The notes below the pieces were generated by a model. The model worked only from the letters and a program-made list of their open reading frames with translations, made no database searches and had not been told where the DNA came from. Below, piece by piece: positions 34,563-56,375 of a stretch of 64,000 bases of DNA. How positions within the stretch are numbered: the first letter of the stretch is position 1; each line of letters starts with the position of its first letter. Made by a program: the position numbers and the translations under genes. The stretch is from Ganoderma boninense (Eukaryota; Basidiomycota; Agaricomycetes; Polyporales; Polyporaceae): positions 124,001-188,000 of the forward strand of contig PJEW03000015.1 in NCBI GenBank assembly GCA_002900995.3. The letters are read 5' to 3'.

Positions 34563-35003
34563 TCACCTGAGCCATGTCTTCCGGTGCGCGAAGGCAAACT
34601 GCAAGGCCAGACAAGGTGTGCGCCGGTATCTGGACACCCAGGACAGCATGTCGACGTCCAACATGAGATGCCATGTCAAGAAGTGCTGGGGCGCCAAGGC
34701 GCTGGTGCTGGCAAAGTCACTCAGCAACGTCGATGATGCACGCGAGCAGACCTTCAAGAAATTTATGGACGGGGTTCAGCTCACTGCTCACTTCGAGCGG
34801 AGGAAGGGCGCGTGGGTTACCTACCTTCACCGCAACCATACGAAATCCGAGACACGCACAGAAGTCGTCCGGTGGGTCTGTGAGAACGCACGGCCCTTCA
34901 ACATCATGAAAGATCGCGGCTTCTTGAGCCTCATGAAGGCGGGAAGGCCGGGACATTATGTTCCCTCGCCCTCGACAGTCTCTCACGATGTGAAAGTTGT
35001 CTT
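34563..35003 (+). pseudogene. hAT2 transposase, piece A (N-terminal part)
   Basis: Encodes the BED-like zinc finger (FRCAKANC, then STSNMRCHVKKCWG) and the following segment (RTEVVRWVCENARPFNIMKD, YVPSPSTVSHDVKVVF), aligned without gaps to the corresponding part of hAT1. It is cut exactly at 35004 by the TGTTACG end of the chromovirus LTR. The last 5 bp are GTCTT. The continuation (VFAQTRNRIAKILQ...) is on the opposite strand at 52759, where the same 5 bp border the other LTR end. Sequence upstream of about 34560 does not look like hAT, so the 5' end of the element is missing or rearranged. Confidence 0.85.
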
Positions 35004-35463
35004 TGTTACGACTGGCTGTCGAGTAAGATCAGGGAGGAGGCTTACGAGACGAGCAAGGGCGTCGACGAGCACTTGTGCAACAAGAGCGGAGCAGGGCTCG
35101 ACAGTCAGGCTGGAGACAAGGTGTATTGAGCAAGTAACTAACGAGCGAGAATACAGCGAGGCTTACCTGGAGACAAGAGGTCGAAACTGAGGTCTCCAGG
35201 TAGTGAAGTACAGGTCTTATATACATGTAATGGACAATGGGAACCGGGGACAATAGGTAACTATGGACACGGGAACCAGTGGAAGAACAATGGTATGTAG
35301 TACAATGACGACGGGAACAATGAGTAACAGGAGTTATTGTACTGCGAGAACAAGGGACAGGTTTGCTAAACAACGGAGGACAATAAGGACGACGTGGGAG
35401 GCAAACAGTCCAAAAAGGGAAATAGAGACGCCGGGGTAGGTGCCGAGCGTGCCGTTCATGACA
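35004..35463 (-). repeat. Chromovirus 3' LTR (460 bp)
   Basis: On the plus strand it begins TGTTACGACTGGCTG and ends GTTCATGACA. Preceded by the GTCTT target duplication. Confidence 0.93.
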
Positions 35464-35489
35464 ATACCCCCCTCCTAAGGATCGTGTCC

Positions 35490-38400
35490 TCACGATCGAG
35501 TCTTCTTGTTGAGGGGGCCCGGAGCGTCGGGATGTGTCGAATGAAACTTTTGCAGCACTTTTGGCGCATTTGCTAGATCTGACACGTCTTCCCAGCTATC
35601 GTGTTCAGGGCCCCAGCCCTTCCAGTGAACAAGATATTGCAGTTTCTTCCACCGCCCATACCGACGCGACTCCAACACTTCCTCCACTTCATACTCTTCC
35701 TCTCCTTCCACTTCAAGAGCTGCAGGTTCAGGGGGATGCCGACCGGGTAGTTGGCTTTCTTTGTGCGGGTGTAGGAGCGTCACGTGGAACACTGGGTGGA
35801 GCCCCATGTCTTTGGAGAGCTTGAGCTCGTAAGCCAAGTTGCCCACCTTGCGCTTGACAGGGTACGGGCCAGCGTACCGGTCCACCAGTTTCCGAGAGAC
35901 TCCTAGGAACCCGGAAGTTCCTCGTGTCGAGCCACACCTTCTGACCCTCCTTGAACTCTGGAGCAGCAGAGACATAGCGATCGTAGTACTCCTTCATCCG
36001 CTCTGCTGCCAGGTTTAGGGCTGAGGTCGCATCCTCCCTTGCCTGCCGCAACTCCTCTCTTCGTTCATCTGCCGTAGGCACCGTGGTGGATAGCATCGGA
36101 ACGTGGAACTGAGGTTCATAGCCGTACATGAGGTAAAACGGCGAGTACCCTGTGGATGAATGTACGCACGAGTTGAAGCAGTATTCTGCTGTTGGCAGCC
36201 ACTTGACCCAATCGTCGCGGCGCCTTGAGCAGTACATCCGTAGGTACGCCTCTATCTCCTGGTTCCATCGCTCTGACTGTCCATCTGTCTGCAGGTGGTA
36301 GGCTGTGGACAACGCACTGTCTACGTTGAGGCCTTTAAGGATTGCACGGAAGAGCTTGCTAGAGAACTGAGGCCCCCGATCAGAGATGATCTTTCGCGGG
36401 AGTCCATGTAGACGGAACCATTCCCTAATGAAGTTGTCTGCAGTCCCTTCCGTGTTGATCTCCTCGGTGCATGGGATAAGGTGAATCATTTTTCCATGTC
36501 GATCAGCAATAAGCTGGAGCGCGTTGTATCCGTCAACCTCTGGCAGTCCAGTGATGAAGTCACAGGTAACTACTTGGCCTGGGCCGTCCGGGATCTCGTT
36601 AGGTTGAAGAGGACCTTGTGGCTTAGCATGTGAAGTCTTGCCACGGTGACAGGTGTCGCAGGTCTCAACGTAATCCTTAATGAACTTTGCCATGCCCAGC
36701 CACCAGTAGTTCCATGTAACCAATTCCACCGTCTTTGCCTGGCCAGGGTGTCCAGCAGGCGGGAGGTCGTGGTGAATGCGCACTATCTCTGCTAGGAGCA
36801 CGTCGTCTTTGGGGACATAAACTCGGCCGTGGTAGAGCAGCAGGCCTTGTTCTGTGTTCCAGTCCACCAAATCGTTTTGTAGACGTGCTGGCCCTAGCTT
36901 ATCGAGCTTGCTGAGTGCCTCTGCAACCTCCTGCTCATGCTCTCCACATTCTCGAATGCGGCGGAGCAGTGCCTTTTCTGGTACCACTGACATGTGCCCT
37001 CTCTTGGCTGCCAGTACTCGGAAGCGATCGGGTTGCAACATGACTCGGTTCAGGTTGTCATCGGCATCATCCTTCTGGTGATTGGGTCTGCGTGACAGCA
37101 CGTCTGCCCTACCATTGGAGGTGCCTGGCTTGTGTGCAATGACAAAGTCAAACTGCGACAGATAGAGAGCCCATCGTGCCTGCTTGCGTGTGAGGTTTTG
37201 CGCAGCCTTCCAGTACTCGAGGTTCTTGTGGTCCAACTGGATCTCGAACACACTGGGGAGACCCTCGAGGTAGTGGCGCCAGGCCTGCAGGGCACGGATG
37301 ATAGCGAGCATCTCCTTGTCGTAGATCTCATAGTTGCGTTCCGCATCGCTCATTGACTCAGAGTGGAAAGCCACAGGGTGCTATTTGCCATCCTCCCCCT
37401 CCTGAGACAGAACCGCACTGGTAGCATACCTGGATGCATCGACTTCAATGCGGGTTTTGCGGTCTGGGTCATACATGCTCAGGACAGGGCTTTCAGTGAA
37501 ACGACGTTTGAGCTCATCGAATGCTGATTGCTCTTCGGCACCCCATTGCCAGGGAGCATTACCCGTGAGACGGTCAAGGGGTTTGCATACTGCGCTGAAG
37601 TCCTTAATGAACCGCCTGTAGAAATTTGCAAAACCGCGGAACTTCCGTACGTCTGAGGTGTTCTGAGGGACAGGCCATTCTGCAATACCCCTGACCTTTA
37701 CTGGGTCCATCTCCACACGGTTCTCCGAGACGAGCACACCTAGGTACTCAACCTTCGGCTGTTTGAATTCGCACTTCTCTGGCTTGCAGAACAGGTCGTG
37801 CTCCGCCAGACGCTTCAGGACCTCACGCACCAAAGTGCGGTGTTCCTCGATGTCGTTGGTGAATATGAGGATGTCGTCGAGGTAGATAGTGATTTTGCCG
37901 AGTATGATGAGGTCCTTGAAGATGTCGTTCATGAGCGCAGAGAATGTACTGGGCGAGTTAGCCAGTCTGAAGTACATCACGTTCAGTTCGAACAGTCTGC
38001 GATTGGTAACAAAGGCAGCCTTCCATTCATCACCAGTCTTAATCTGCACGTTGTTGTACCCCCAACGGATGTCAAGCTTTGTAAAGTACTTGGCCCTCTT
38101 GAGTCGATCCATCAAGTCTGACACCAACGGTAGTGGGTATCAGTTCTTAATGGTGATGTCATTCAATCGCCGGTAATCCTGTACAGGATGTAGGCTGCCA
38201 TCCTTCTTTTTAACAAAGAAGAACGGCGACGACATCGGTGACTTTGACTCTTGAATATATCCTTTGGCCAAGTTCTCACTAAGGAATTTGTCAAGCTCGA
38301 CCTGCTCGCTGGGCGACAGGGGGTACACCTTGGAATGGAACATCCTAGCATCTGGTACGAGTTCTATAGCGTGGTCATAGGGTCCGTGCTCAGGTAGACG

Positions 38401-39491: not shown

Positions 39492-40005
39492 TAGATACTA
39501 CTTACAAACATTAATGTAGACTGTGCACCTGGGGCGTGTACGCATCGGACTTGTTGTGGTGGGACGAGATAGTTGTTGGAACGATTGCAATGGACATAAT
39601 ACATTCCGGACTTTCACTCATCTGCATCATACCGTACGACTGACGATGTAATTTACGACAGTTTCTCGTTACACATGAACTGTTTTATTTCACAAGCTAA
39701 CTTCTTTGCTTTCGTCCTCGCTCTGTGCCTCTCGCTTGCCCTTCCGCCGTCTTTCTCTTTGCCAACCGTCGACTTTGCAACACGTTGTGGCTGACACTTG
39801 CCCCGACAGAGGTTGGCACCGTCCTTCACGAGTCGAACACGATCACGGGAGCGCAATATGCTCTTTGGCGGGTTGCTTGCCGTGGGCTGTCTCGACTCTG
39901 GATGCGGCTTCCTGGGCTGGCGACATGCTCCCTCCATCATCTTTATCCTGCGAAAATGGCTGGTCTGCTCCTTCTCGTCGTCGCCCGCCCACCACAAACC
40001 AAGAC

Positions 40006-40585: not shown

Positions 40586-40763
40586 GAGCTTTCCGCGTAC
40601 TGTACCACTGAGAGTGGCAAGCCTCAGGTTGCGCTGAGACCACGTCCGATAGTGTGACTAGAGCGCGTACTACGCTAGGCCAACACAGAGGATCTAAGTG
40701 CGTACCGTACGAGAAGGAAAGAATGTGGAGTACGCCGGTGCTCGTGTAGAAGTTTCGACCTAA

Positions 40764-41223
40764 TGTTACGACTGGCTGTCGAGTAAGATCAGGGAGGAGG
40801 CTTACGAGACGAGCAAGGGCGTCGACGAGCACTTGTGCAGCGAGAGCGGAGCAGGGCTCGACAGTCAGGCTGGAGATAAGATGTATTGAGCAAGTAACAA
40901 ATGAGCGAGAATACAGCGAGGCTTACCTGGAGACAAGAGGTCGAAACTGAGGTCTCCAGGTAGTGAAGTACAGGTCTTATATACATGTAATGGACAATGG
41001 GAACCGGGGACAATAGGTAACTATGGACACGGGAACCAGTGGAAGAACAATGGTATGTAGTACAATGACGACGGGAACAATGAGTAACAGGAGTTATTGT
41101 ACTGCGAGAACAAGGGACAGGTTTGCTAAACAACGGAGGACAATAAGGACGACGTGGGAGGCAAACAGTCCAAAAAGGGAAATAGAGACGCCGGAGTAGG
41201 TGCCGAGCGTGCTGTTCATGACA
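40764..41223 (-). repeat. Chromovirus 5' LTR (460 bp), inversion junction
   Basis: Same 460 bp as at 35004-35463 and 53205-53664. It is followed at 41224 by the 413-bp segment X, not by the target duplication expected for the insertion in hAT2. Confidence 0.92.
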
Positions 41224-41636
41224 TGTGAGCACAATACAAAGACGACGATCCTAAGGACATTTGCGTACCCCTTGCGTCCTCTCAATGATATCGCCCTTCT
41301 GCTCCAATAGCCCTGCCGGATCGAGACTTTCGGCGGGCTCAACCAGTTCGACACCTGGTTCTGGGTCCTGGTTGAATAGGAGGAACCAGGGAAATTTCTC
41401 TCAGTAACCACAAAAACTGTGTTCCAGAACTGGTTCTGAGGGGCTCGCTTCTTCCCGCGCAGCTCAAGGAAATCGTCGAGGAATTGCCTGAGGTAGTTGT
41501 ACCGCATCAGCGTGAATATTGTGTGTTTGCCCGATTTTCCCCCCTTGACTTTCTGCTTGCGTTTACAGCGGGTGATGGTGACCCTGGACATCACTGGGTG
41601 CGCGACATCCACAATGTCGAAAGCCATGCTGGTGGA
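41224..41636 (-). repeat. 413-bp segment X, copy 1 (inverted duplicate)
   Basis: Read on the minus strand it starts TCCACCAGCATGGCTTTC and ends GTGCTCACA, directly before the LTR. The same 413 bp, nearly identical, precedes the LTR at 53205 on the plus strand. The frame in it (MAFDIVDVAHPVMSRV...) is open in both copies but unlike known proteins. It includes a palindromic CCTGGTTC...GAACCAGG stretch. Interpreted as a duplication made during the inversion. From 41637 to 42040 no gene is supported. Confidence 0.9.
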
Positions 41637-42040
41637 CACGGGGCGTAAGTGATTCGAGGGCGCAGATCTGGGAGGGAGAGACTGGAGGGAGTCTGCAGTG
41701 ACAGTGGGCAGGAGGGTGAGAGAATTGCATGCGCGCAACGAGGTTCCTGCAAGTTCGTCGCGCGGCAAGTGGGAGGAAACCACGTTGGCAATGCCGTGAC
41801 AGTAGGTGTGTCGTGTGATTGGTCTTCTGTGTGCGAACCGAGAACTGGTGGGCGGCCAGCCTGACCGGAGTGCGAGTGCTGGTGCCCGGGGCTATGGCGT
41901 AACCACACTGAGTGACAATTGTCACATGTAACAAGCACACTTACTTAAGTAGGGTACCTCGGGCCTCAGGCCTCAGCCCCCACGGCCGTGGCATCGAGTG
42001 CCTCCCCTCCCACCGTCCCTCCCTCCTCTCTTCCATCATC

Positions 42041-43283
42041 ATGGTAACCGATAGCCTCTGTCGTGATTTCGACGCTACCGCCTTGTCCCTCGGTGACACC
42101 CCTTACTTGGATGACCGTGGTCGAGTCATCCCGATCGGCGCCCCTGAGGATCCCAACATCCCTGACGATGATGTGCCGTTCTACATTGTGTGGTCCGGGT
42201 GCGGTGTTGGTTTGTTCAGAAATTGGTGCAGTTTTAATTTTTTCCCTTCACGCTACTTCAATGTCTCAGTACGATCTCCAGGGGTGTTACGAACGCCATG
42301 GTTAATGGCTTCAGCAGCACGTCATTCAAGCTGTATATCGGCATTTGGAATGCACGCGCGGGTTGGGCAGGCGGCCCCCTTCACACCGGCGCACCAACCT
42401 GGATCCCTCCGAAGCCTCGCCCAGCTGTAACGACACCTAGGCTCCCCCCCTTCCACCGGCACCCACTGAGCATGAGGATTCTGACGGGCTTCAGATGCCC
42501 AGCAATTTCAGCGCCATGCCTCCTGCCCCGATCATCACCTATGAAGTCTCTTCTGAGGACTACGTCGACATTCACAGTGTCCAGAGCGAGGACTCGGAGT
42601 GGCTCCCCCCAGCCCCATTCACTTGCAATCGGAACATGCCTCCTCCCATTTCTTCCATCTCATGCACGTCAGTGCACTCATCGCCATCGTGGATGACTTC
42701 CGGCACCATCTCGGTCCGCAGCCTCGACGACGCACTGGAGCTGTCCGCCTCCCTTTCGAACCTTGCTATGGGAGAAAGGTACACAGCCGTTGACCACGTC
42801 GTGCAAGAGTACATGGCTGCTTTGGCTGACCGCTCTACCAGGCACTCCCCAATCCGCCGCTCAGTCTCGTCGCAAGGCTTGCGCGAACAAATCTCCTCCT
42901 CCCCGGGCCCGTCACGCGCACGTCACCTCCCGCGCCCTGAAGAAACTGCGATCAGCAGCGACACTTTCACCCGCAGCAGTGTCGCTCAAAGGGTGAAGGG
43001 TGACCCAGTGTACGTGGTCGTCAAGGGTGCGCGGCCGGGGGTCTATCTTGACTGGTGCGTCCTCACGCATATCATTCTTCGCTCTCGGCTAACTCCTCCA
43101 CTTCTCAGCGACATCACCCTTCTCGCTGGTGGTAATCTACCAGCGATGAGGGTAATCCGATTCAACTCCCTCAAGTACGCCTGCTTCCATTTCGTGCTGG
43201 AGTACATGGGTGGCAATGTGGGTGTGCCACAATACATTGTTAGTCAGCGCCCTCGCGATGTGGATGAGCGGTTTGAGAAGTGA
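42041..43283 (+). CDS. Protein with two viroplasmin-like (RNase H1 N-terminal-like) segments
   Basis: Four exons fit splice signals and phase: 42041-42225, 42270-42426, 42495-43054 and 43109-43283, giving 358 residues. Two segments look like the small domain shared by caulimovirus viroplasmin and the RNase H1 N-terminus. The first is at about residues 45-95 (VPFYIVWSGCGVGLF, then a helical GFSSTSFKLYIGIWNA). The second is near the C-terminus (DPVYVVVKGARPGVYLD, then FNSLKYACFHFVLEYMGG). In each the helix follows after an intron at the same place. The family domain binds RNA:DNA hybrids or double-stranded RNA. Between them is an S/P-rich linker. It lies inside the KDZ2 unit, probably as cargo. 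Domain assignment is by eye and moderately sure. Confidence 0.55.
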
Positions 43284-43377
43284 CCCTGTACTTACGTGTT
43301 TTCTGTCTGTACTATGCGAACGTGATGAGATATATGTGATGTGCCCGCCAGATACAATAGATCACGTATGTGCTTGA

Positions 43378-43884
43378 TTACATGCCAAGAGTGCTAGAAA
43401 CCGGCAGCATGTCCAGCCAGGCTTCCACAGCTGACATTGCATACATCACCTGAAATGCAACTGATGACGTTTCTTTCCAGAAGTGCGCGACAACCTCTGC
43501 CGAGAGCTGCGCGTACAGATCCCCACCCAAAACCCGGTCAAACTCATTGAGAATCTGGTCACCCTGCAAGATCCATTCCTCCTGGGTGGCAATAAACTTC
43601 GCGACGGCATCTGGATTGTCGGTGCGCAGGGATGTGAATGCGTTTTTCATGCCGCGTTTGAAGTCTGTGGGAGGCCGAAAACCCCATGCATTGAGCATGC
43701 TGTTTACACGGTCGAGCCATGCGAGGAAGTCTCCGTCCACTGTGGGTCCTATCGGGAGACTGAATGGCCCGTGGCTGACGCTGAGAGTGATTGTCAGCGA
43801 TGATTCCATCGACGCAGTCTCGTTCCACTGAAACTTACTGGTGCCACGCAGCGATTGGACGGACATCGGGGGACTCGGAAGCAT
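43378..43884 (-). CDS. Hypothetical protein, 168 aa
   Basis: A single open frame from the ATG 43884 (MLPSPPMSVQSLRGTSKFQW) to 43378. From about residue 40 it is ordered and helical (VDGDFLAWLDRVNSMLNAWG, PDAVAKFIATQEEWILQGDQ). A possible GTAAGT...CTCAG intron at 43781-43838 covers the less ordered residues 16-35, but the phase did not fit. I do not recognise the family. Tail-to-tail with the viroplasmin-like gene, inside the KDZ2 unit. From 43885 to 44403 only the TET/JBP 3' flank is present. Confidence 0.45.
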   Translation of the reverse strand: MLPSPPMSVQSLRGTSKFQWNETASMESSLTITLSVSHGPFSLPIGPTVDGDFLAWLDRVNSMLNAWGFRPPTDFKRGMKNAFTSLRTDNPDAVAKFIATQEEWILQGDQILNEFDRVLGGDLYAQLSAEVVAHFWKETSSVAFQVMYAMSAVEAWLDMLPVSSTLGM

Positions 43885-44403
43885 CTGGCTCGCTGCCGGG
43901 AGTAGCGGTCAAATGTTGGAGCTTGACAGCTTGGGAGGTCCCTTGAGAGCTACGCATGCCCTCGAGCATTTTTTGATCAGGTGCCCAGCCTGTTTGTTGC
44001 CTTTGCAAAATTGTGAGTGGGGTGAAGGCCGTTGAGCAATGCGGATGTACGCACTTTTTATGCTTCTTGTAGTACCTTCAATTGCGAGCTTGACGAAGCA
44101 AACACCTGCGTTCCTAGATATCGACCTGTGGAGGGAGGGATGGAGAAGGACAGTGCACCATGTTCGTAAACAAGTAAGATGCGAGGGCTGGCGGGAGCAG
44201 ACTTGGAGGCGTCTGAACTGTCTGAAATGCAGTGTCGCAGGAGGGCGCCGTCTTAAGGGAGTCTTGCGAACTTCAGACGCCTGACGCGACCATCTGAAAT
44301 GGGCCAGCTAACATTTCCGGCCACCGTCCAGACCAAATAGCATGTCTGGTGCAACAATGTTTACAAAAAGTCATAAATTGCGTACATACATACAGACGTT
44401 GTA

Positions 44404-46165
44404 CTACTCCTCCCCAGGAAACAGGTCAGTCCACTTGCTGAGGAGGCCAATGCCACGCTGCCATCGCTCCTTTGCAGTCTCTTTGAACTGACACCCTGTG
44501 GCCTTGAAGTTCTTCTGACTTTGATACCCGCATTGTACCCACCTAAGAATCCCTCCCGCCGTGTACTGTACAAAAGACTGTCGGACTTCGTTCACGGGAT
44601 CATGAAGCTGAGTATTTGAATGCTTGAGCAGGGCGGATGGTATGAGGATGGTGGAGCCGGGTGGGAACTCGATGATGAGTTTCAGGTCCCACAAGACGAG
44701 GTGGCCGCCGAGCTTGGGGTCGAAGCTCCCGATAGCCGTAATCGCGCACCAGCCAACGGGCATGTTCAAGTGATCCATGTGAGTGTAGGCGACCGTGCAC
44801 AGGCCGACATTGAGCGACGCAGCGGCGAAGGGATTTCCCAGAAAGTTGTGCTGCAAAGAGGGGTCGTGGTTGCACACGTCGTTGAGGGCGGCGTTGTATG
44901 CCTCGAACATGCATGGCGCGAGGAGGCGCATGATGGCTGGAAGTACCCCATCAGTGATCGCCACCGAACAAGGGCGCCGACTACGCACCACTGCTGAAGT
45001 TGGCAATCTGATGTACTGCGCGCTGGCGCATGACCGCGTTTAGCACAGCTTGATTATGCGCGGTGTGCGCAAGGTTGGCAATGCGCTGGGGAATTGTTAG
45101 CAGAAGAGAAGGGGTCAGAGGGGGTCACAACACACCTGTTGGCCACCGCCGTAAGAGATGCCGCACGCCACCGCGCTAAACGCACCCCGACGATGCTCGC
45201 GTTGGGCCTTTGAGAACCTGTAGTGTGTTACAAGGAGCTGAAAGATGGATGTCAGTTGGTCATTGACAGTGTCCCAGTTGTCGTCTGCCGTGCAGCTGCC
45301 AAGTGCCCCCATAACATGTCCTGAGCGGGAGAGAATCGGGCGGCATGACCTGAGCAGCCAAGTCCATATTTCAGAAATCAGACGTGGGGGCAGAGGTGAC
45401 GCACCGGCCATCCCATGCCACGTACTCGAAGCCCATGGGCGCGAACTCCTCCTTTGCCTTCGGCCGCACATCCTCCTCCGTCTGCGTCAACCGCTCGCCC
45501 ACGAACACAGTTGATGCCACGCGAACGTCCTCCATGGCTAACGAGAAGTCCATGAGGATGGGGTCCGCTCCGTAGGGTTGGATGCCACTGTTGTCTTGTG
45601 CTAACATGGTCTTAAGGCTATTGGGAGGCTGGCAGGCAACGTGTTCACCAGCAAACAGTGGGTTGGCTGCCTTCCAATGTCGCACTGCGGCCTTCTTGAA
45701 GGGCTTGGACCCCCCTCGCCCCTTGACCTCCGCGAGTAGTTGGCATTTCGCACGGCGTCGAGCATGGGCGGACTGCTTGGCCTTCGCTTTACTTTTAGAA
45801 GGGGGATGCCGGGCCGCCGATTCTGGCACGGTCACAGGTGTGACAGTGAGCTTTGCCGTGTTCATGCTGTCGAGGGCGTCAAGGGCGTCAAGGGCGTCAA
45901 GGGCGTGTACATCAGGGGGTGGCTCGCTGAACCCAGCGGAGGTCTCTGGTACCGAGACGTGAATGCCGTCCTCTTCTGCACTGCTGTCATTACATCGGCC
46001 AAGTGCGTCTTCATACGCGGCGTCGAGGTCGAAGTCCTGTGGCACGTAAATTAGCGGCCCAGGTTCGGAGACCCATGGCGAGAAGGTCCTGCCTCCATGG
46101 GTCTGATGAACCACTTGGTGAGAACGATGTACGCCGGGGTACATAAATGGAGGCAGGCGTACCAT
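44404..46165 (-). CDS. TET/JBP-family 2OG-Fe(II) dioxygenase, intact
   Basis: Exons at 46165-45405, 45349-45136, 45085-44989 and 44936-44404 obey GT..AG and keep phase, giving 534 residues with no lesion. The N-terminal ~230 residues are partly low complexity (three LDA repeats from a 12-bp tandem) and basic. The core follows: HRRGAFSAVACGISYGGGQQ, IANLAHTAHNQAVLNAVM. His410-Met-Asp412 (YTHMDHLNMPVGWCAITAIG) gives two iron ligands, and GGHLVLWDLKLIIEFPPGST comes next. His463 (LLKHSNTQ) is the distal ligand, and Arg476 (RQSFVQYTAGG) is the expected 2-oxoglutarate binder. In this family the enzyme oxidises 5-methylcytosine or a methylated thymine; substrate here is inferred. Head-to-head with the KDZ2 transposase, the arrangement known for KDZ elements that carry TET/JBP genes. 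Confidence 0.88.
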
Positions 46166-46546
46166 TCAGAAGCCTGTGGGCAGGCTGTCCATCGCTGAAC
46201 CTGTGTGTGAGGTGCATGAGAAAGTGCCGCGGTGTGATGTCAACCGCTGCGAGGATGGCCTGGCACCCTGCGTCCCAAGGGCGAGTCTGGGGGGTACACA
46301 AGACACCAACACTGCGGGGTGAAAACAGAGCTCACTTTGACAACCCTTAGGGGGCCTGGAGAACGGTGGGGTGGGAGGGCGCGCAGGCCAAGTGGCACAA
46401 GCGCCGATGTTTGTGTTCGGTGTCACCCTGGTTCGCCATTGTCACACTCACGGGGCCTGTGACGGAACTCCAATTAGCGTGACTGCCCCATTCCGTACCC
46501 AACTGCCCTATCCCGTACCCAACTGCCCAACCCACTCCTCCGATTC
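46166..46546. promoter_or_regulatory. Divergent promoter region between TET/JBP and KDZ2
   Basis: About 380 bp between the two head-to-head starts. It contains a short tandem duplication (CCCGTACCCAACTGCCC-like, 46490-46532). No TATA box was recognised; the call rests on geometry. Confidence 0.4.
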
Positions 46547-49500
46547 ATGTCCAGGCAAAAGTCCAAACGACCATGTAAATTCGCAGATGCTGCGGACACC
46601 TCCCTTTCTGTCGACTTCGACGTCTCGTCCGCGGAAGCTTTCGATGGTGCCGCTCCCTCCTTGTTTAACGTTGACACTGTCTCGAGCGATCTTCGCCGCC
46701 TATATCGCCATGCTCTTCCCATTCCACCCTCTGGATCCCAGTCTCCGGCCCCCTAGGCTTCCGGAAGTCTTCCAGCTCTTGGTGCCCCGGATTCACATGC
46801 AGAGAGCGGGTTTTTCTTGCCCGACGAGGGCTGGTCAACAGCTGACATGGACCCCGCTAGCGAAGAGCAGGCTGAGCGGCCTCTACGCTATGAGACCTCA
46901 GTACGTATGGCGCAGGTTATTTTTTCAGGCTTCACATTGACACTTTAGCCACCAGGACGAACCTATGAAGCAGTTCATTCCCCAACAACAGTTTTATCTC
47001 GACAAAATGCTGTGATGCGAAGGACGCGGAGATTTTATCAAAGACCGCTGCCCCTACTGCCCAGAACCCGCCCATGTGAATGCGGGGTCCATTCGGTGTA
47101 TGGATTGTTGGCCGGGGCCTCTTTCCTGTCACACCTGTGCTATCGGACGCCACGCGAACTTGCCATTTCACCGTGTTAAGGTAAGCTGAGTGCTCCATGT
47201 ACACAAAATAAGGCTTGACGCATCATTCAGCGTTGGAACGGCGTCAGTTTCGATAAGACCAACCTCAAGGCCATCGGGTTGAGGATGCAGCTCAGCCATC
47301 AGCACAACAGCGCCTCTTGCTCCAATCCCATCCCCGTCTGCGACAATTTCACCGTAGTGCACGTTAACGGCCACCACCCTCTCGCCGTGTCGATGTGCGG
47401 TTGCGACCAGGCGGGGCGCGCAGGCAGCCAGGTCTAGCAACTCTTGCGTGCTGACCTCTGGCCCGCTACAGACGCCGAACCCAACACTTGCTTTTCTTTC
47501 GCGCTCCTCGAGCATTACCACATTGTTAGCCTTCAAGGCAAAATCAGTATGTACGACTACTACCAGGCACTCAAGCGTATGACGGACAACACGGGGACCG
47601 TCAGGATCTTCAACCGATACCACGGATTCATGTGCGTAGTCACCCAATGGTGCCACCTCAAGCTACTGAAGAGGGCCAGGCGTGGTCATGACCCGTCTGG
47701 TGTCGTAGGTACAAAGCCCGGGGAGCTGGCTATCTGATGTCCCGCATGCCCACAGCCCAATATGAACCTCCCAGCGGGGTGGGATGACGCACCTTCCAGC
47801 GAGAAGTACGTGAGCTCAACTTACTTCTCGTGGCCGGCTGGACTTACAAAACTCAACTAGGTTCCTGTACACCGTCCACGTTGCGATTGACACGTGCTTC
47901 CGCCTCAAGCGCCGTGACGTCTCCGACGAGCAGCAGGATCCCATTTTGGGCAGTGGTTGGGGGTACTTCGTTGAGGACGCCGCATACAAGGCTATTTTAG
48001 CGCAGTATGGTGATCAGGAAGATGTGCGTTCGCTTTCTTTCTCCCTCTGGCTCTATCTGACACATGGCAGATGTCCACTTGTACTGGCCTCTCTGCCATT
48101 GATCACGCAAATACGAAGTATTCGAAGGGTTATGCGGCGACAGGAGTTGGAGCGGTTGTGTGTGCGCGCCATGAGTTTTGGCTGCTGAGAGCCATGGGTG
48201 ATTTGCAGAAGGGCGAGCGGTACGTGTTTGTCCAGGGTCTGTAGCTTCTGCATGTGTTCTCAATGGCGACAAGATACGTCAACATGGATTATGTGTTCGC
48301 CTGTGCCATGCAGGATTTTCTGTCCCTCCAAAAACTCGTCAGCTACGATATCGCTTGCTAGTGGTGGAAAGGGCTTCAAGATCGTCTCGCAGTGTTTCCA
48401 TCATATCTCCAAGTCCCTCTCCTGAACGGCTCAATTGCATACGTGATCTCCAAGCTCCACTACGCTAGCCACAAGCCAGAAGGCCATTCGCCATTCTCAC
48501 TGAACTTCCGCCTGGGATCTGGTCACTCCGACAGAGAAGGGATCGAGCGTCGGTGGTGGTGGATCCAACCTGTTGTCAGCAGTACACGGGTGATGGGGCC
48601 GGGCGCACGTCAAGGAGTCCTGGAGGACCAACTGAGCTACTCAAACTGGCGCAAGACTGTAGAGCTACGTGCGTGCTCTCTCTGTGCAATATCTCGCCTC
48701 CGCTAACCTTTTCTGCAGCGACCACTCTTCGCAACCGCCTACGGATTGCATACAAGACCTACTTGGAGCAATGGCAAGTTTTCACGGAGCTTACGGAGTC
48801 GCTCATTCCAGAGAATGTCGCCAAATGGGGGGCAGCAATCCAAGCATAGGAGAAGGACCCCTTCAACCAGGATGACTCTTACGTCGTAACCTCGCAAGGT
48901 GAGTTGAGAACTGTCACAACGTGTTAGCCATTAACTCAAGTCAATCAGGCTTGACCGAAGCGGAGACACTGCACGTGCTCTCGCACGAGGAACAGCAAGC
49001 AAGCGCACGGCTGGGTTACGTCACAATCCACGACATTAGTGCCCTGGGATTCGTAACGATGGGCTTGGAGCTTGAAGCTCAACAGTTAGTTGTGCACCCT
49101 CATCTGGTATTGAAACTTCACTGACCACATTTACTAGGATGTGCTTGCAAGCTGATGTGAAGGATGCCACTCCAGGCAAGGCAACAGAGATTCTTGAACG
49201 CCGTATAGCCATGCGCTGGAAGATTCAGAAATTTCGCGAAGTCCAGAAGGTTTACATGCCCGGCGCAGCTACAATTGTCGAGCAGGATATCAACTGCCAA
49301 ACAACTGTCGAGGACATCGAGAACGTCCGGCTCGCGCTGCCCTCCACCATCAACCCTGCACGCTGGGCTGTTGCGTGCTCCGAACGCATCCAGGAACTGG
49401 AAGCGTGTCTGCGTGAGGCCCAGTGCCGCGATGCCCTGCAGGATATCCGCAACAAACCGCACGCCATCGACCACTTGTATCGCTACAAAAAGCTCCATGT

Positions 49501-50158
49501 ACACCACCAGGGACCCAACACTCGTGCCCGGAATGATATCGCAAACAAGGACAAGCGCAAACTCTGCGCGGTTCAGAAGTACCGCCGAGCGTGCCTGGCA
49601 AAGCTTGCACTCTCGGGCCCTGGCGCATGGGAGAACGAGTTGCGGGTCTTGAACGACAGCGACATCCGTGGCCTGCAAGAGGACGACCCCACTTCTGCGG
49701 CTGCACAGAGGAAGAGGAAGCACCCGAACGACTGGCCGGAGCCCGCTGAGGGAAGGCGACAAATCTCTTGGATATGGCGTGCATCCGACGTCAATGGCAC
49801 GGGCGAGATGGTCGACTCACTTCGCGTCGAATGGCTGAAGGCACGCGCGCATGTTATGCACTGGCAAGAGGAGGTCAAGCTCCTTCTGGAGGAGATGCGG
49901 TGGGTTTTTGCCAGCCACCACTTCCATGAAGGGGCTTGGCTTGCGCAGGTGGACTCACAGGCGGACGTCGGTGCTGCGTTGCGCGAAGGCCTCGTCGCCT
50001 ATGCTCAAAAGCGGGCCAATGTGCAGCGGGCAATGCGGGCCACATTCCGGGCCACATGCTTGGCTGTCGCGCGGATGGCTGATGGCGGTACGGGCAGTGA
50101 GTGGGTGGACGACGGGGTGCCTGGTTCAGTAGCGCCATGCGAGGATGATGAGCACTGA
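46547..50158 (+). pseudogene. KDZ transposase with CxC2 domain, four premature stops (KDZ2)
   Basis: Blocks from 46547 (MSRQKSKRPCKFADAADTS) run through a cysteine cluster at about 47045-47165 (CPYCPEPAHVNAGSIRCMDC, CHTCAIGRHANLPFHRV). The CxC2-like region follows (VVHVNGHHPLAVSMCGC, SFALLEHYHIVSLQGKISMY), then FLYTVHVAIDTCFRLKRRD. The catalytic core has NMDYVFA, YDIAC and REGIERRWWWI. A long helical C-terminus runs from 49139 (EDIENVRLALPSTINPARW, HVHHQGPNTRARNDI, PAEGRRQISWIW) to 50158. Stops interrupt otherwise open family sequence: TGA 47013-47015, TGA 47735-47737, TAG 48359-48361 (after YDIAC, where Gln is usual) and TAG 48847-48849 (where Trp is usual). The introns look normal. The C-terminal exon of 339 codons is clean. 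Confidence 0.85.
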
Positions 50159-50247
50159 GAGTACGACTCCCAGGCCATGTACGAACTAGACGGAGAAGAT
50201 CTAGAGGTAGATCACATGCGTATCTAATGATGTCAATGAACTTCTTA

Positions 50248-50550
50248 TGCCCTGGAAACCCCTGCATGCATCCTGTCGCGTGCCCTCTCACCTGCATGTC
50301 TCAATAAGGAAATGATACGAGGATGAGTGCTGCACCGAGCCGGATGGCAACGCTCGCGAACGCCGTGTGCGCCCTGTACCCGCCACCCGCTTGTTTAGGA
50401 AGGCTGCCGACAAGCCGACGGAGGCCCCCAATAGCCGTACAGCACCCGGAGAACGCCCCGGCGGTTCATAATAAATCATGCCAACAACCGTAAAATGATG
50501 TAAAATGGCCCTAGGATATAACCGTAAGATGATATATCATTATTACAACA
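50248..50550 (+). repeat. 303-bp terminal repeat, left copy (KDZ2 unit)
   Basis: Matches 55304-55606 over its whole 303 bp at roughly nine bases in ten. In the present order the two are direct repeats starting TGCCCYGGAAACC and ending ATTAYACAACA-type sequence. This copy sits in the inverted segment, so before the inversion it pointed the other way and the pair were terminal inverted repeats with outer ends TGTTGTRATAATGATATATC. Its outer end touches hAT2 piece B, its inner end the KDZ2 gene. Confidence 0.85.
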
Positions 50551-52759
50551 GCAGCTGTCGTCGTCGATGCAGTCGTCTGGGGCGGCGTCAAGCTCATCAA
50601 GAATGTCAAAGATGTTCTGCAGTGCGGCAACCATGTTAGTCAGTGTGCAGTGGCGTCCGAGTGAACAGAAACATTAATACATACCCAGTCATCCTTAACC
50701 TTCGGGGCTTCTGCATCCTCATCTTCTGAGGGGTGCTCGTTGTCGTCCGAGCCATGCACTGAGCTGGACGCACGCGAGCTTGTAGTGTGGGTGCTCGGGG
50801 CATGCGAGCTCGCAGGAGCTCACACCGCGCGAACTCGCGGATGGAGTCTCATCGCCACGCTCGTGCTCATCTTGAGTCCTGTTGAAGTGGCCGGCATAGC
50901 ACGCGGCGTACTCCTGCTCGACGAGCTCGCACGCAGTGCGCTGCCATTTGCCAGGCCACTTGAACCTTCGGAAATAATCTAGCTTGTGCTGAGGGTGCAG
51001 GACTGGCGCAAGACGCAAAGGTTAGCAAAAAAACATGGTGGTGCACTGTAAAACTCACCCATGGTGATCCGGTAGGTTGCAGACTCGTCAGTGAGTGAGT
51101 AGTACTTGTCGACAGTCTTCTTGGCCAGGCCGCACGCCATCTGTACCGCATTCGAATATGCTGGGTTGCAGCACGCGTTTGTCAACGTCTCCTCGACGTG
51201 ATTCATGGCCGGAATCACGCGTGCAAGGTTCGGGACGTCACGAGAGAAGTATAGTGTAGCGCTCTTGAAGACCTGTGGGTGATGGGGTGCATGTGGAGGG
51301 TCCGAGTGCCAGGTCGCAGCGATGGTGGGATTCCAGGGTGCAGGTCGAGGAACAGCGTCGGCGCGATGCAGATAAAAGGTGAACCGAGAACCGAGAAAGA
51401 TTGTGGTGAGGAAGCGAGGGTATGGAGCAGTATGGACAGTTGTGGTCACGGCAGAGTGCGTGAGTGTTAGACGGGGTTCACGGTCAGAGGGGGATTGTGG
51501 GCGGACGCCATGGGTTCAATGGCGAGGCGGGGAACCCCGAGGAGAGGATGGCATGGGTGCGAGGTTCATTAGCAAGGTTCAACAGTAGAGTTCAGGCAGC
51601 ACATGAACCTCAAGGACCTCTTGCACCTGTGTTAGCATTGCCCACAACTCATCGTCCTGCTTGTATGCTCGGAGCCCATTCGCCGGTCACATCGTCATTT
51701 TATCGACGACTTCACGATACTCAAGCGCGAAGTTCAGCATATCGAACGTGGAGTTCCACCAGGTTCGGACATCTCGGGGTAGCAAGCGCTCCGGGAGCCC
51801 CACCTCCTTGCACACCCTCTTCCACTCCGGGAGGAGCCTCGTACTGGAGTTGATGATTTTGAAACCCAAGGTACGAATCTGTATTGTCGTCATGAGCATG
51901 GGCGCTGAGATTTTTAACAAACCATGACTAACCTTCGCGATTGCTAGCTTAAACGGCCGTACATCGGTCTCAAATTCCTGCCGCTCCTCCTCCGACGGGT
52001 CCTCCATCGGGTCGATGTCGTCGCCGGTGTTGTCTATGCTCTCCTCGTCCTCATCATCCTCGTCATCCTCGTCCTCGTCCTCTTCCTCTTCCGCTTGTCG
52101 ATCCGCGCACTTGCGCGCATTCCGTTTCTGTTCATGTTCCTGCTCAAACTCTTCAAGGTCAGCAGCAAGTTTGCGAAGCTTGCGCTCCTTGTCGTCCTTG
52201 CCCGGGACGTGCTCCTTTGGCTGCACGTCGAACTCGCAAATCAAAGACTTTACAATCAAGCTCAAGACGTGCAGAAAGCAGCGCATGCGGGACCATTGCC
52301 CATCAAAGAGGGGGAGGTATTCAATGAGCTCCTGGACCATGGTGTCGTTGTTAGAAGTGTTGTTGCAGGTGATGCGGACGCGCTAGATGTTTCAAACATG
52401 AGTAGTCTGAGCGTAGTCTGAGCGTGCGTCGACCGTGCGCACAAGCTGCGTACCTTCTTGCTAATCCCGAACTCTTGCAGGACTGGCGCGAACGCATCCG
52501 TGAGGTGCGCGCCTGTGTGCGATTTTGTGACTTGGACAACTTCGAGGACCATGGTAATCGGCCCGCCCTTGTACTCGAAGTGTACACACAACACGACAAA
52601 GGAGCGGTGATTCGGAGAAGTCCAGGCGTCCGTGGTGAACGCCAGGGACCCTTGGTACTCCTGGAAACCAGTGCACGTCAGAAGATCGACATCTCAACGC
52701 GCGACACCCTCTCTTACCTGCAAGATCTTCGCGATCCGGTTGCGCGTCTGCGCAAAGAC
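50551..52759 (-). pseudogene. hAT2 transposase, piece B (central part)
   Basis: Read on the minus strand from 52759. It begins VFAQTRNRIAKILQ, exactly where piece A stops. It continues TTDAWTSPNHRSFVVLCVHF, MRCFLHVLSLIVKSLICEF, a long acidic run, PRDVRTWWNSTFDMLNFALE, YFSRDVPNLARVIPAMNHVE and FRRFKWPGKWQRTACELVEQ. It ends near 50551 with NIFDILDELDAAPDD. All blocks follow the hAT1 order. It stops at the outer end of the 303-bp repeat, and the remaining C-terminal part is at 55607 on the other strand. The first 5 bp (GTCTT in coding sense) repeat the last 5 bp of piece A. Confidence 0.88.
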
Positions 52760-52791
52760 TGTCATGAACTGCACGCTCGGCACCTACCCCG
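52760..52791 (+). repeat. First 32 bp of the chromovirus LTR
   Basis: TGTCATGAACTGCACGCTCG plus 12 further bases match the LTR start with two changes, then break off at CCCCG where segment X begins. It is the outer tip of the original 5' LTR, still beside its AAGAC (GTCTT) target duplication at 52755-52759. Confidence 0.85.
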
Positions 52792-53204
52792 TCCACCAGC
52801 ATGGCTTTCGACATTGTGGATGTCGCACACCCAGTGATGTCCAGGGTCACCGTCACCCGCTGTAAACGCAAGCAGAAAGTCAAGGAGGGAAAATCGGGCA
52901 AACACACAATATTCACGCTGATGCGGTACAACTACCTCAGGCAATTCCTCGACGATTTCCTTGAGCTGCGCGGGAAGAAGCGAGCCCCTCAGAACCAGTT
53001 CTGGAACACAGTTTTTGTGGTTACTGAGAGAAATTTCCCTGGTTCCTCCTATTCAACCAGGACCCAGAACCAGGTGTCGAACTGGTTGAGCCCGCCGAAA
53101 GTCTCGATCCGGCAGGGCTATTGGAGCAGAAGGGCGATATCATTGAGAGGACGCAAGGGGTACGCAAATGTCCTTAGGATCGTCGTCTTTGTATTGTGCT
53201 CACA
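52792..53204 (+). repeat. 413-bp segment X, copy 2
   Basis: Nearly identical inverted duplicate of 41224-41636, likewise followed by the chromovirus LTR. The join to the 32-bp LTR tip is at CCCCG, which is also present next to X in copy 1 (GCCCCGTG), so a few bases of microhomology mark the junction. Confidence 0.9.
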
Positions 53205-53664
53205 TGTCATGAACAGCACGCTCGGCACCTACTCCGGCGTCTCTATTTCCCTTTTTGGACTGTTTGCCTCCCACGTCGTCCTTATTGTCCTCCGTTGTTT
53301 AGCAAACCTGTCCCTTGTTCTCGCAGTACAATAACTCCTGTTACTCATTGTTCCCGTCGTCATTGTACTACATACCATTGTTCTTCCACTGGTTCCCGTG
53401 TCCATAGTTACCTATTGTTCCCGGTTCCCATTGTCCGTTACATGTATATAAGGCCTGTACTTTGCTACCTGGAGACCTCAGTTTCGACCTCTTGTCTCCA
53501 GGTAAGCCTCACTGTATTCTCGCTCGTTAGTTACTCGCTCAATACATCTTGTCTCCAGCCTGACTGTCGAGCCCTGCTCCGCTCTCGCTGCACAAGTGCT
53601 CGTCGACGCCCTTGCTCGTCTCGTAAGCCTCCTCCCTGATCTTACTTGACAGCCAGTCGTAACA
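53205..53664 (+). repeat. Chromovirus-type LTR, solo, opposite orientation
   Basis: Third copy of the 460-bp LTR, TGTCATGAAC...GTAACA on the plus strand. No internal element sequence follows; the next base starts the gene at 53665. Together with X it forms an inverted repeat with 40764-41636. Confidence 0.92.
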
Positions 53665-55119
53665 TGAGGTCCCGGACGGTGCGGAAATCCTGACGCTCTC
53701 GGATTTGGACATGCCTGAGACCGTACTCCCCTTCCTCAATCGTCTCAGTCCCGAAGTCCGTCGCCAACAGCTCTACTGGTACGGCCTTTCGACTGAATAT
53801 GACCGCAGGTGCATCGCTGCCAGGATCCTCAGAAGTGAGCTGTGTCGCTCTCTCGCCGCTCGGCCTCGACCAAGGTCCTTTCGGCTCAACATCTGCCGCG
53901 GGGCAGAAATCCAAGACTAAGAAGACTAGTAAAGGCAAAAGTTCAGCGAGAACCCCCGCCCAGCCCGATTCCACCTCCCCGAGGAGATCTGCAAGGCGTC
54001 GCGCAACTAAGTCGTCCACTGCGATGAACTCCGGATCGACATCGTCCGCCCCACAAGTGCTCGACACTCCCACGACCACCAATCCCAGCGAGCTGGAGAG
54101 TGGCTCCTCCGCGGCTGATGCGGCGCTTGCAAACGAGCCGGCCTCGCAGACCCTTCTCCTAGGACATGGTCAAGTGGCGCCTACGCCACCCCAAGACGTC
54201 TTTCAAGCTGTTGAGTTGACCCCTGTTCTGGCCCCAGGAGCAGACGGAGCTGCTCCAGCTGACCCCGGTGCTGAGCGTGTCACAAATCTGCCCACTGCCT
54301 CAGTGCAGCCGGCATCAAGTGGCCCCTCGTCAGAAGGCATGGCAGATCAGGTGGGGTCCCCGGCATCCACGGTGTTGTTGCCGTGGATGTTGGATGAGGA
54401 CGGATGGCCTGACTGGTTGAAACATACCTACAACTGGCTCCACAGTTCGCAAGAAGTTCTCGGGCGCGACTTCATGTGTGCCACGGACTGGTGGACAGTT
54501 CTCGAATGCGCGTACAATTGGGAGACCTCTGTGAGTCTTACATGCAACTCATAGCTCGTGTTCAACACTGACATCGAATTAGCCAAAGGGATACGCAACG
54601 CAAAGTCGCCCAGAACAAGTTGCCCATTGGCTGCGTGTCCTTCGCGCAGACGTTGAGAAGATCCCGGTGATTGAAGACACGCAGGAGTATGCGCGCTGCT
54701 GGTGGGAGTGGTGGGGCAATCTTCAGCCAGACTGGCGGCAGCGAGACGCTGCTGGCCATCCCCTCGCGAGCGGAGATGGAGACTTGGACGTGCTGAAGAA
54801 ACCCAGGAAGAACAGCATCCAGATCGTCCTGCTCTCTCTCGCGTGGTGGGGGCTGTTGGTCGCAGACACCCGGCGCAACAGCTACGATGCCGTGGTGCAT
54901 GAGGACTGGTGCGCCGCGGCAAAGGACGTCGCATGGGCGGTCTCGAAGCTCATGTCTTGGGCTGGAAAGAGGTGGGAGCACTCGCGCTGCAGTCTGCCTT
55001 TGTGTCGCTTTATTGATCGGTGGGTTGCAGGAAACGTGGCCTCAGTGAGGATGCAGAAGCAGAGGAAGCCTCCCCACCTGACAAGTGTCGTCGCCGTCAG
55101 TGAGAAGTCCCCTGCATAG
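53665..55119 (+). pseudogene. Hypothetical gene truncated at its 5' end by the solo LTR
   Basis: The coding sequence is open from the first base after the LTR (EVPDGAEILTLSDLDMPETV) with no start, so the 5' part was cut away. Blocks: 53665 to about 53834, about 53907-54530 and 54583-55119; the last intron (GTGAGT...TTAG) fits in phase. The middle is low complexity with a basic KTKKTSKGKSS segment. The C-terminal ~200 residues are ordered and tryptophan-rich (WMLDEDGWPDWLKHTYNWL, WWEWWGNLQPDWRQRD, IVLLSLAWWGLLVADTRRN). Proteins with this WW-x-LQP-x-WR module are common in mushroom genomes; function unknown. It lies next to the right 303-bp repeat and is probably cargo of the KDZ2 unit. Confidence 0.55.
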
Positions 55120-55303
55120 ACACGCTGGCAGCTGGGATGCCAGCCCTTCACTCTCCCGCATCTGCAACCCATCACAGTTCCTGCTTGCGTCTGTCACCCC
55201 CTCTCATAGTTTGCTGTAGCCTGTCGTCGCTGCTCTCGTCTTGGACCTTTCCTTTTAGAGTAGTAATAATGATGACTTAATGTTTCCCATACCCCAGTTG
55301 TAA

Positions 55304-55606
55304 TGCCCCGGAAACCCCCACGCGCATCCTGTTGCGTGCCCTCTCACCTGCATGTCTCAATAAGGAAATGATACGAGGATGAGTGCTGCGCCGAGCCGGA
55401 CGGCAACGCTCGCAAACGCCGTGCGCGCCCTGTACCCGCCGCCCACTCGTTTAGGAAGGCTGCTGACAAGCTGACAGAGGCCCCCAATAGCCGTACGGCA
55501 CCCGGAGAACACCCCAGCGGTTCATAATAAATCACGCCAACAACCGTAAAATGATGTAAAACGGCCCTAGGATATAACCGTAAGATGATATATCATTATC
55601 ACAACA
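55304..55606 (+). repeat. 303-bp terminal repeat, right copy (KDZ2 unit)
   Basis: Partner of 50248-50550. Its outer end (55606) touches hAT2 piece C, its inner end the truncated gene. The 5-8 bp next to the outer ends of the two copies do not match, so no target duplication can be shown. Confidence 0.85.
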
Positions 55607-56033
55607 TATGGTGATGATGAACTGGAACACTACCTCAGCACCCCAACCGAGAAGACCAGCAACGTGATCCAGTGGTGGACAGACCGGTGCAAGATTTATC
55701 CCAACCTCTCGCAGATGGCAATAGATTACTTGACGATTGCCGGTACGTACGCCACAGTGCATCCAGGCCTTTCGCCAGCTCATTCTCCTTGATTGTGCAG
55801 CAACCTCAGTCGACGTCGAACACCTCTTCAGCTGGGGACGCCTGATCTTGTCCCACGTTCGGAACCGCCTGAGTGCGCAGACTACGCGCGCCATTCTGTG
55901 TGTTGGTGCATGGAGTCTCCTCAATCTTATCAAGCTGGAGGACGTGAGGAAGGTCGCTGAGCTCGAGGACCTCGAAGGGGATGACGACGTTGTGCTCGCA
56001 AAGGGGTGGGACCATATCAATCTCAATCAGTAG
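55607..56033 (+). pseudogene. hAT2 transposase, piece C (C-terminal dimerisation part)
   Basis: Begins immediately after the 303-bp repeat with YGDDELEHYLSTPTEK, aligned to GDELERYLRVGPEH of hAT1. It goes on to IQWWTDRCKIYPNLSQMAID and, after an intron, TSVDVEHLFSWGRLILSHVR with the usual hAT end to 56033. It supplies exactly what piece B lacks. The opposite strand to B is explained by the inversion. Confidence 0.88.
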
Positions 56034-56227
56034 TAGCGCCCAAATGTATCTTACATTAGATGGCTGTTTTGTCTCGTCGCGACGTTGTACCTGTGTTCAA
56101 ATGCATGTTCATGTCTGTCTGCACATTTTGCTGGTCACAGAGGTTCCTCGCTGCTTGCTAGAGCTGAGGTCGGCGCACAGAAATAAATGTACATATATTG
56201 AATGTACAACTACAAACATTTTTGCTG

Positions 56228-56375
56228 AAAAACCCGCGGGTACCCAGGAGTTTACCCGTACCCCCTACCCCGCGCTTGTTATACCCCTACCCCCATATAC
56301 CCGGGGGTCGAAGGGTAGGGGTATGGAGGGTAGGGGTAAGGGGTATGACCCAGACACCCGGGGGTGACCCCCCGC
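56228..56375. repeat. hAT2 3' subterminal repeats and candidate end
   Basis: Dense ACCC/GGGT words (CCCGCGGGTACCC, TACCCGTACCCCC). Read from the outer end on the minus strand it begins GGGGGGTCACCCCCGGGTGTC, close to the hAT1 left end GGGGTGTACCCCTGGGTGTC. It borders the Copia gag directly, so hAT2 appears to have inserted into the Copia element. Confidence 0.6.

What the first reader, a model, noticed from the sequence alone, without database searches (positions are those of the whole stretch)
34563..56033. One hAT gene in three pieces on two strands records two insertions and an 11-kb inversion
Piece A (+, ends DVKVVF at 35003), piece B (-, begins VFAQTRNR at 52759) and piece C (+, begins at 55607) are consecutive parts of one transposase; joined, they follow hAT1 without gap or overlap. 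The chromovirus end at 35004 is preceded by GTCTT. The LTR tip at 52760 is preceded by AAGAC, the reverse complement. So the chromovirus once sat between A and B with a normal 5-bp duplication. The now mismatched flanks (GTCTT/TGTGA) arise because the segment between about 41.2 and 53 kb was turned round by recombination between its 5' LTR and an oppositely oriented LTR copy in the downstream KDZ unit.
Basis: partly seen in the sequence, partly recalled or inferred. Interest (0 to 1): 0.88.

Follow-up and report, generated by a model that had tools for sequence, protein, structure and literature searches.

The report
Split and flipped jumping-gene fossil
A dead fungal jumping gene was interrupted by two other mobile elements, and a stretch of about 11.7 thousand bases was then flipped, most likely by faulty DNA repair between two copies of the same repeat; it is a clear fossil of a known kind of rearrangement, with one extra twist, a small duplication that a simple swap between repeats does not explain.

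Summary
An uninterrupted hAT copy elsewhere in the genome (C12) aligns in one run to piece A (95.0%), piece B reversed (95.0%) and piece C (97.0%). A and B overlap by exactly 5 bases, the chromovirus target duplication; B and C by 8 in the alignment, that of the KDZ (Kyakuja-type) element. The KDZ ends, inverted in two relatives (C7, C1), are direct here. hAT order, KDZ ends and target duplications all show the inversion.

The proposed mechanism is half right. The chromovirus 5' LTR looks like a mosaic: its tip matches the KDZ-borne LTR, its interior its own 3' LTR. But the other junction is not the reciprocal product: 32 nt of LTR tip are joined, with 1 shared base, to a second copy of 413 nt of KDZ sequence, followed by an unrecombined LTR. 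One side closed by homology, the other without it, leaving an inverted duplication.

The hAT copy also lacks its first ~0.96 kb, and the KDZ-borne LTR stands where both relatives have ~1.3 kb more. Each component is a known kind; reads could not be checked. Interest: modest.

The parts
34566..35003 (+). hAT piece A, 5'-truncated; ends with GTCTT (34999-35003), first copy of the chromovirus target duplication
   Evidence: 95.0% to L009 3397-3834; left junction to a repeat also found on C7
35004..41223 (-). Chromovirus (Ty3/Gypsy with chromodomain): 3' LTR 35004-35463, RT/RNaseH/integrase/chromodomain frames, 5' LTR 40764-41223
   Evidence: Pfam RVT_1, RT_RNaseH, Integrase_H2C2, rve (31.6 bits, just under its 32.6 cut-off), Chromo; LTR coordinates
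41009..41195 (.). Interval of the exchange inside the chromovirus 5' LTR (sense positions 29 to 215; to 233, i.e. 40991, if the LTR'-private site 215 is a later change): tip side like the KDZ-borne LTR, inner side like its own 3' LTR
   Evidence: diagnostic sites; 0 of 25 other LTR copies carry T29
41224..41636 (-). X1: KDZ flank of the KDZ-borne LTR, left copy, still joined to its natural neighbour at 41637
   Evidence: X-Y continuity in C7 and C1 relatives
41637..50557 (.). Inverted part of the KDZ (Kyakuja-type) element; KDZ transposase domain on + at 48074-48646, weak TET/JBP match on - at 44404-45036; outer end CAGCTGCTG (read on -) at 50557
   Evidence: colinear with C1 and C7 units
50558..52759 (-). 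hAT piece B, inverted; carries KDZ target duplication at its 50558 end and AAGAC (52755-52759) at the other
   Evidence: 95.0% to L009 3830-6082
52760..52791 (+). 32-nt tip of the original chromovirus 5' LTR (C at position 29, as in its 3' LTR and 25 of 25 other copies)
52792..53204 (+). X2: second copy of the 413-nt KDZ flank; novel junction at 52791/52792 with 1 nt shared
   Evidence: 3 mismatches, no gaps against X1; junction context
53205..53664 (+). LTR' borne by the KDZ element, tip to tip, no matching target duplication (TCACA / TGAGG)
   Evidence: 11 and 13 differences of 460 from the chromovirus 5' and 3' LTRs
53665..55613 (.). Uninverted part of the KDZ element with outer end ...CATATGGT(G)
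55613..56384 (+). hAT piece C: begins with the second KDZ target duplication (GATGATGA, or ATGATGA if 7 bp), hAT dimerisation domain at 55619-55756, ends in the hAT 3' TIR
   Evidence: 97.0% to L009 6075-6844; PF05699; TIR

Best explanation
Ancestral order: hAT piece A, chromovirus (minus strand), piece B, KDZ (Kyakuja-type) element carrying a solo-like LTR (LTR'), piece C. Shown by sequence: both insertions with their target duplications, and the inversion of about 11.7 kb. Shown, though on few sites: the chromovirus 5' LTR is a mosaic with LTR', so homologous exchange between the two inverted LTRs made the left junction. Shown: the right junction is a non-homologous join of 32 nt of LTR tip to the start of a 413-nt segment that is now present twice in inverted orientation. 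Inferred (about 0.4 on its own): one event, in which a break in the chromovirus 5' LTR was repaired by invasion of LTR', copying through the KDZ and piece B, then a second switch or end joining with 1 nt of microhomology back beside LTR'. The confidence given is for the history and the two kinds of junction, which the first two rivals share; they differ only in the inferred step.
For: hAT order and 5- and 8-base overlaps against C12. KDZ ends direct here, inverted with perfect target duplications in C7 and C1. KDZ interior order Y-X-Z in C7 and C1. LTR mosaic: positions 11 and 29 equal LTR'; positions 215, 233, 249, 259, 260, 307, 332, 443 equal the 3' LTR; T29 in 0 of 25 other copies; A260 only in the two chromovirus LTRs, 0 of 25 others. 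Detached 32-nt tip has chromovirus-type C29 and AAGAC. X1-Y continuous in both relatives; X2 begins at a new junction. Published precedent for junction 1 in inverted repeats by break-induced replication and junction 2 by microhomology or end joining: PMC4352052, passages.
Against: Only two sites place the LTR' side of the mosaic, and one of them (A11) is also in 3 of 25 other copies; in positions 1-214 the 3' LTR and LTR' differ at only those two sites, while the 25 others differ from either by 5 or more. Of the eight inner sites, 215 and 443 are private to LTR' and may be later changes. Reads were not available, so an assembly error is not excluded. The order of events at the two junctions cannot be read from the sequence: staggered breaks, or a plain crossover followed by a second repair, leave the same product. 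The KDZ target duplication in the window is imperfect (6 of 8, or 5 of 7, bases).
Confidence: 0.84

Rival explanations
1. Plain reciprocal crossover between the two inverted LTRs, with the 413-nt duplication added later by a separate repair event in the right-hand LTR. Same history as the best explanation, different route.
For: Left junction is exactly the product expected. A later break at LTR position 32 repaired by copying LTR tip and X from the left copy, then end joining, would give the present right junction.
Against: Needs two independent events in the same 460-bp LTR, the first leaving no trace of its own on the right: no chimeric right LTR is seen.
Confidence: 0.25
2. Staggered single-strand breaks around X and LTR', filled in to give two copies, with the left end joined by LTR homology and the right by end joining. 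Same history, different route.
For: Inverted duplication of non-repeat sequence flanking both ends of an inversion is the staggered-break signature in Drosophila (PMC5080602 passages) and is used as a sign of end joining in cod (PMC12368964 passages). X is present once in each KDZ relative and twice here.
Against: Staggered breaks closed by end joining at both ends do not predict a mosaic LTR, which is seen.
Confidence: 0.25
3. Assembly error: the orientation or the duplication is an artefact of repeats or of a fold-back read.
For: The same assembly has a palindrome of at least 9.2 kb on C9 whose arms differ mainly by 1-nt gaps (half alignment: 16 mismatches and 48 gap events in 4651 columns), which looks like an uncorrected fold-back read.
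Against: The window arms differ by substitutions only: 3 of 413 for X, 11 of 460 for 5' LTR against LTR', no gaps. The unique 32-nt-tip/X junction and the mosaic LTR are not products of merely choosing the wrong orientation.
Confidence: 0.07
4. Pieces A, B and C come from different hAT copies brought together by chance.
For: hAT relatives are numerous in this genome: at least 43 matches to PF05699.
Against: A, B and C share 95-97% identity to one copy while the next long relatives are near 67-70%; the boundaries overlap by exactly the lengths of the two target duplications.
Confidence: 0.02

Closest known systems
Inversion by ectopic recombination between inverted transposable elements
   Same: Oppositely oriented LTRs of one family at both ends; one LTR is a mosaic of the two
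   Different: Only one chimeric repeat, not two; the other junction is non-homologous with an inverted duplication of non-LTR sequence
Staggered-break inversions described in Drosophila
   Same: Inverted duplication (413 nt plus LTR) at both ends of the inversion, from one ancestral breakpoint
   Different: The left end was closed by LTR homology rather than end joining
DUP-TRP/INV-DUP two-step rearrangements at inverted repeats (PLP1, MECP2)
   Same: Junction 1 inside inverted repeats, junction 2 with 1-nt microhomology
   Different: Here the inverted segment remains single; only 413 nt plus LTR are duplicated; the event is old and in a fungus
Kyakuja (KDZ) transposons carrying TET/JBP genes in Agaricomycotina
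   Same: KDZ transposase domain, ends that can be read as 5'-CA..TG-3', target duplications of 7 or 8 bp, weak TET/JBP match
   Different: Its two ends are alike over ~300 nt at 92-93%, whereas the two Laccaria Kyakuja families are described without TIRs (PMC12730594 passages)

Membership tests
TE-mediated ectopic-recombination inversion | Related elements in opposite orientation at both ends | tested here: met
   881-nt inverted arms 40757-41637 / 52791-53671, 98%
TE-mediated ectopic-recombination inversion | Chimeric element copies at both junctions | tested here: not met
   Left LTR is chimeric; right junction has a 32-nt tip and an unrecombined LTR'
Staggered-break inversion | Inverted duplication of unique ancestral sequence at both ends | tested here: met
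   X1/X2, 413 nt, matched once in C7 and once in C1
Staggered-break inversion | Both ends closed by end joining | tested here: not met
   Left end lies inside a mosaic LTR
hAT transposon (one copy in three pieces) | Colinear alignment of pieces to one uninterrupted copy | tested here: met
hAT transposon (one copy in three pieces) | hAT dimerisation domain and TIRs | tested here: met
   PF05699 in piece C; 3' TIR present, 5' TIR lost
hAT transposon (one copy in three pieces) | 8-bp target duplication (length as in PMC12730594 passages) | tested here: not met
   No shared 8-mer at the two ends of the C12 copy; the window copy has lost its 5' end, so it cannot be tested there
Chromovirus | Ty3/Gypsy pol with C-terminal chromodomain and 5-bp target duplication | tested here: met
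   RVT_1, RT_RNaseH, Integrase_H2C2, Chromo over cut-off, rve just under; GTCTT/AAGAC
Kyakuja (KDZ) | KDZ transposase domain | tested here: met
   PF18758, 84.2 bits, cut-off 26.6, one stop inside
Kyakuja (KDZ) | 7-bp target duplication and 5'-CA..TG-3' ends | tested here: inconclusive
   Window, C7 and C1 fit 7 or 8 bp; of 10 related end pairs 5 show 7 bp, 1 shows 8, 3 show none, 1 is a palindrome (read by eye)
Kyakuja (KDZ) | TET/JBP gene on board | tested here: inconclusive
   18.8 bits in window, 19.5 in C1, both below the 34.9 cut-off

The most novel reading that the evidence does not exclude
The locus preserves a single replication-based repair event in a fungal nucleus: break-induced copying that began by LTR-LTR homology, ran about 11.6 kb backwards through two nested transposons, and switched back with 1 nt of microhomology beside its starting template, giving an inversion with a 413-nt inverted duplication.
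Probability: 0.4. Interest if true: 0.45.

Novelty: new member of a known kind. Interest (0 to 1): 0.36.

Why it matters
Nested target duplications, relatives of all three elements and LTR diagnostic sites let one small inversion be resolved to the base on one side and to within about 200 bases on the other. It shows homologous and non-homologous joining together, a combination that simple two-way tests (chimeric repeats versus inverted duplications) could misclassify. It also warns that KDZ or hAT fragments on opposite strands need not be separate copies.

Tried and rejected
Reversed-end (aberrant) transposition of the KDZ element was considered and rejected: both KDZ ends still sit at hAT sequence with a near-matching target duplication, so neither end seems to have been recut.

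An allelic or second uninverted copy of this locus was sought: X/Y, Z and piece B have no near-identical place in the assembly outside the window, apart from the C12 hAT and 57 nt on C9. Those searches score only the best candidates. The uninverted arrangement was thus tested only through relatives of each element.

Relative dating was tried: the two chromovirus LTRs differ at 6 of 246 inner positions (7 of 278 with the detached tip); X1 and X2 plus 29 LTR-tip positions differ at 3 of 442. This suggests that the inversion is younger than the insertion, but the Fisher test gives p = 0.051 (0.086 without the tips), so it is only suggestive. In the inner LTR the two chromovirus LTRs are no closer to each other than to some other copies; that they belong to one element rests on the continuous body and on A260.

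The C7 1.3-kb stretch missing beside LTR' has no match in the window beyond a 35-nt stretch of simple sequence. I infer a deletion, perhaps by recombination between two LTR insertions, but did not show it.

Pfam scans of the other KDZ-region frames gave no domain over its cut-off (apart from KDZ itself).
Full report
Setting. The window is C15:124001-188000 of an unnamed 55.6-Mb genome in 74 contigs. I compared each piece of the finding with other copies in that genome, pieces kept apart.

The hAT copy. An uninterrupted relative lies on C12 (L009). Window 34566-35003 matches L009 3397-3834, window 52759-50558 (reverse) matches 3830-6082, and window 55613-56384 matches 6075-6844. Identity is 95.0%, 95.0% and 97.0%, without a step in 200-base bins. 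The next long relatives are near 67-70%. In L009 the pieces overlap by exactly 5 and 8 bases. The 5 bases correspond to GTCTT (34999-35003), whose reverse complement AAGAC stands at 52755-52759. Among the 25 other LTR copies read, 8 same-contig pairs could be matched by eye: 7 have identical 5-bp flanks and 1 (L042/L050) does not; 2 solo LTRs also have identical flanks. The hAT element in L009 has 19-nt terminal inverted repeats near 2432 and 6845 but no shared 8-mer outside them. The window copy keeps the right TIR but starts only at L009 3397, so its first 0.96 kb is gone, and its left neighbour is a repeat also found on C7. A second copy on C9 is 99.2% like C12 over 1456 bp but ends 57 nt into piece B. 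Pfam finds the hAT dimerisation domain in piece C and nothing of hAT in the scanned frames of A and B.

The KDZ element. Window 48074-48646 holds two stretches of a KDZ transposase domain and 44404-45036 a weak TET/JBP match below its cut-off; a C1 relative shows the same pair, TET/JBP again below cut-off. Its two ends, CAGCTGCTGTTG and (C)ACCATATGTTG, lie at 50557 and 55612/55613, both read on the minus strand. In the C7 and C1 units the same two ends face each other, flanked by perfect duplications GTATGCGC and GTACGCAC. For C7 the window itself provides the empty site, near 32123. In the window the duplications are GACGACGA and GATGATGA, differing by two C-to-T changes. Related shorter elements, 10 end pairs fetched, show 7-bp duplications in 5, 8 bp in 1, none in 3, and 1 is a palindrome. 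Passages of PMC12730594 give Kyakuja 7 bp with CA..TG ends and Zisupton 8 bp; the element is best called Kyakuja-type, not settled. In C7 and C1 the interior runs Y-X-(1.3 kb)-Z, and the window has Y and X turned round against Z.

The LTRs. Three 460-bp LTRs are involved: 35004-35463 (3'), 40764-41223 (5') and LTR' 53205-53664. The 5' LTR equals LTR' at positions 11 and 29 and the 3' LTR at positions 215, 233, 249, 259, 260, 307, 332 and 443. T29 occurs in 0 of 25 other copies, and A260 in 0 of 25. Sites 215 and 443 are private to LTR' and may be later changes. Three further sites are private to the 3' LTR (343, 382, 384) and three set the 5' LTR apart from both others (322, 325, 347, of which 322 varies elsewhere), so they do not inform. 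The detached tip 52760-52791 has C29, like the 3' LTR and all 25 others. So the outer part of the chromovirus 5' LTR was replaced by LTR' sequence, with the switch between 41195 and 41009 (or 40991). A weakness: in positions 1-214 the 3' LTR and LTR' differ only at the two sites 11 and 29, against 5 or more for the others.

The right junction. The 413 nt beside LTR' (X2, 52792-53204) recur as X1 at 41224-41636, with 3 mismatches and no gaps. X1 continues into sequence that aligns through in both C7 and C1, so that side is ancestral. X2 starts abruptly after 32 nt of LTR tip, sharing one base. A simple reciprocal crossover would leave one chimeric LTR there and no second X. The product therefore combines homologous joining on the left with non-homologous joining, or a template switch, on the right.

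Mechanism (inferred). The shortest account is one event: an end broken in the chromovirus LTR invades LTR', is copied backwards through X, Y, the KDZ end and piece B, reaches 32 nt into the original LTR, and switches to X beside LTR'. PMC4352052 (passages) describes this two-step pattern for human inverted repeats, with 1-4 bp microhomology in 14 of 16 second junctions. PMC3102749 (passages) reports Ty1-mediated rearrangements in yeast consistent with template switching, one with a microhomology junction. PMC5080602 and PMC12368964 (passages) set out the staggered-break and ectopic-recombination signatures; this locus shows parts of both. PMC9674265 (passages) reports an inversion involving hAT copies in the mushroom Marasmius oreades, so transposon-linked inversions are known in such fungi. 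The alternatives leave the same sequence and I cannot exclude them.

Artefact check. The assembly is not free of doubtful inverted structures: C9:2407054-2416300 is a palindrome whose half-alignment (4651 columns) has 16 mismatches and 48 gap events, 43 of one base and 35 of those in runs of two or more. The window arms differ by substitutions alone, which argues against the same cause, but reads were not available.

Verdict. What changes is the mechanism, the truncated 5' end, and a KDZ-borne LTR without target duplication. It is a well-resolved example of a known kind of event.

Noticed in passing
L083 (C9:2407000-2416300): Palindrome of at least 9.2 kb around a KDZ-type 2.6-kb element; arms differ mostly by single-base gaps, which looks like an uncorrected fold-back read in the assembly.
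   Followed up: partly
L084 2249-3165 (C9:2368748-2369664): Two LTRs of the chromovirus family abut in opposite orientation, 98.6% alike over 919 columns.
   Followed up: partly
53205-53664: KDZ-borne LTR' has no matching 5-bp flanks and stands where both KDZ relatives carry about 1.3 kb more, suggesting an earlier deletion, perhaps between two LTR insertions.
   Followed up: partly
31931-34566: Repeat 95.6% and 96.4% identical (86.6% at 34204-34566) to sequence on both sides of the C7 KDZ element; the window holds the empty site of that insertion and the repeat abuts the truncated hAT.
   Followed up: partly
L010 (C9:3701800-3711700) 5998: The C9 hAT copy, 99.2% like the C12 copy over 1456 bp, ends abruptly 57 nt into piece B; cause not examined.
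   Followed up: no
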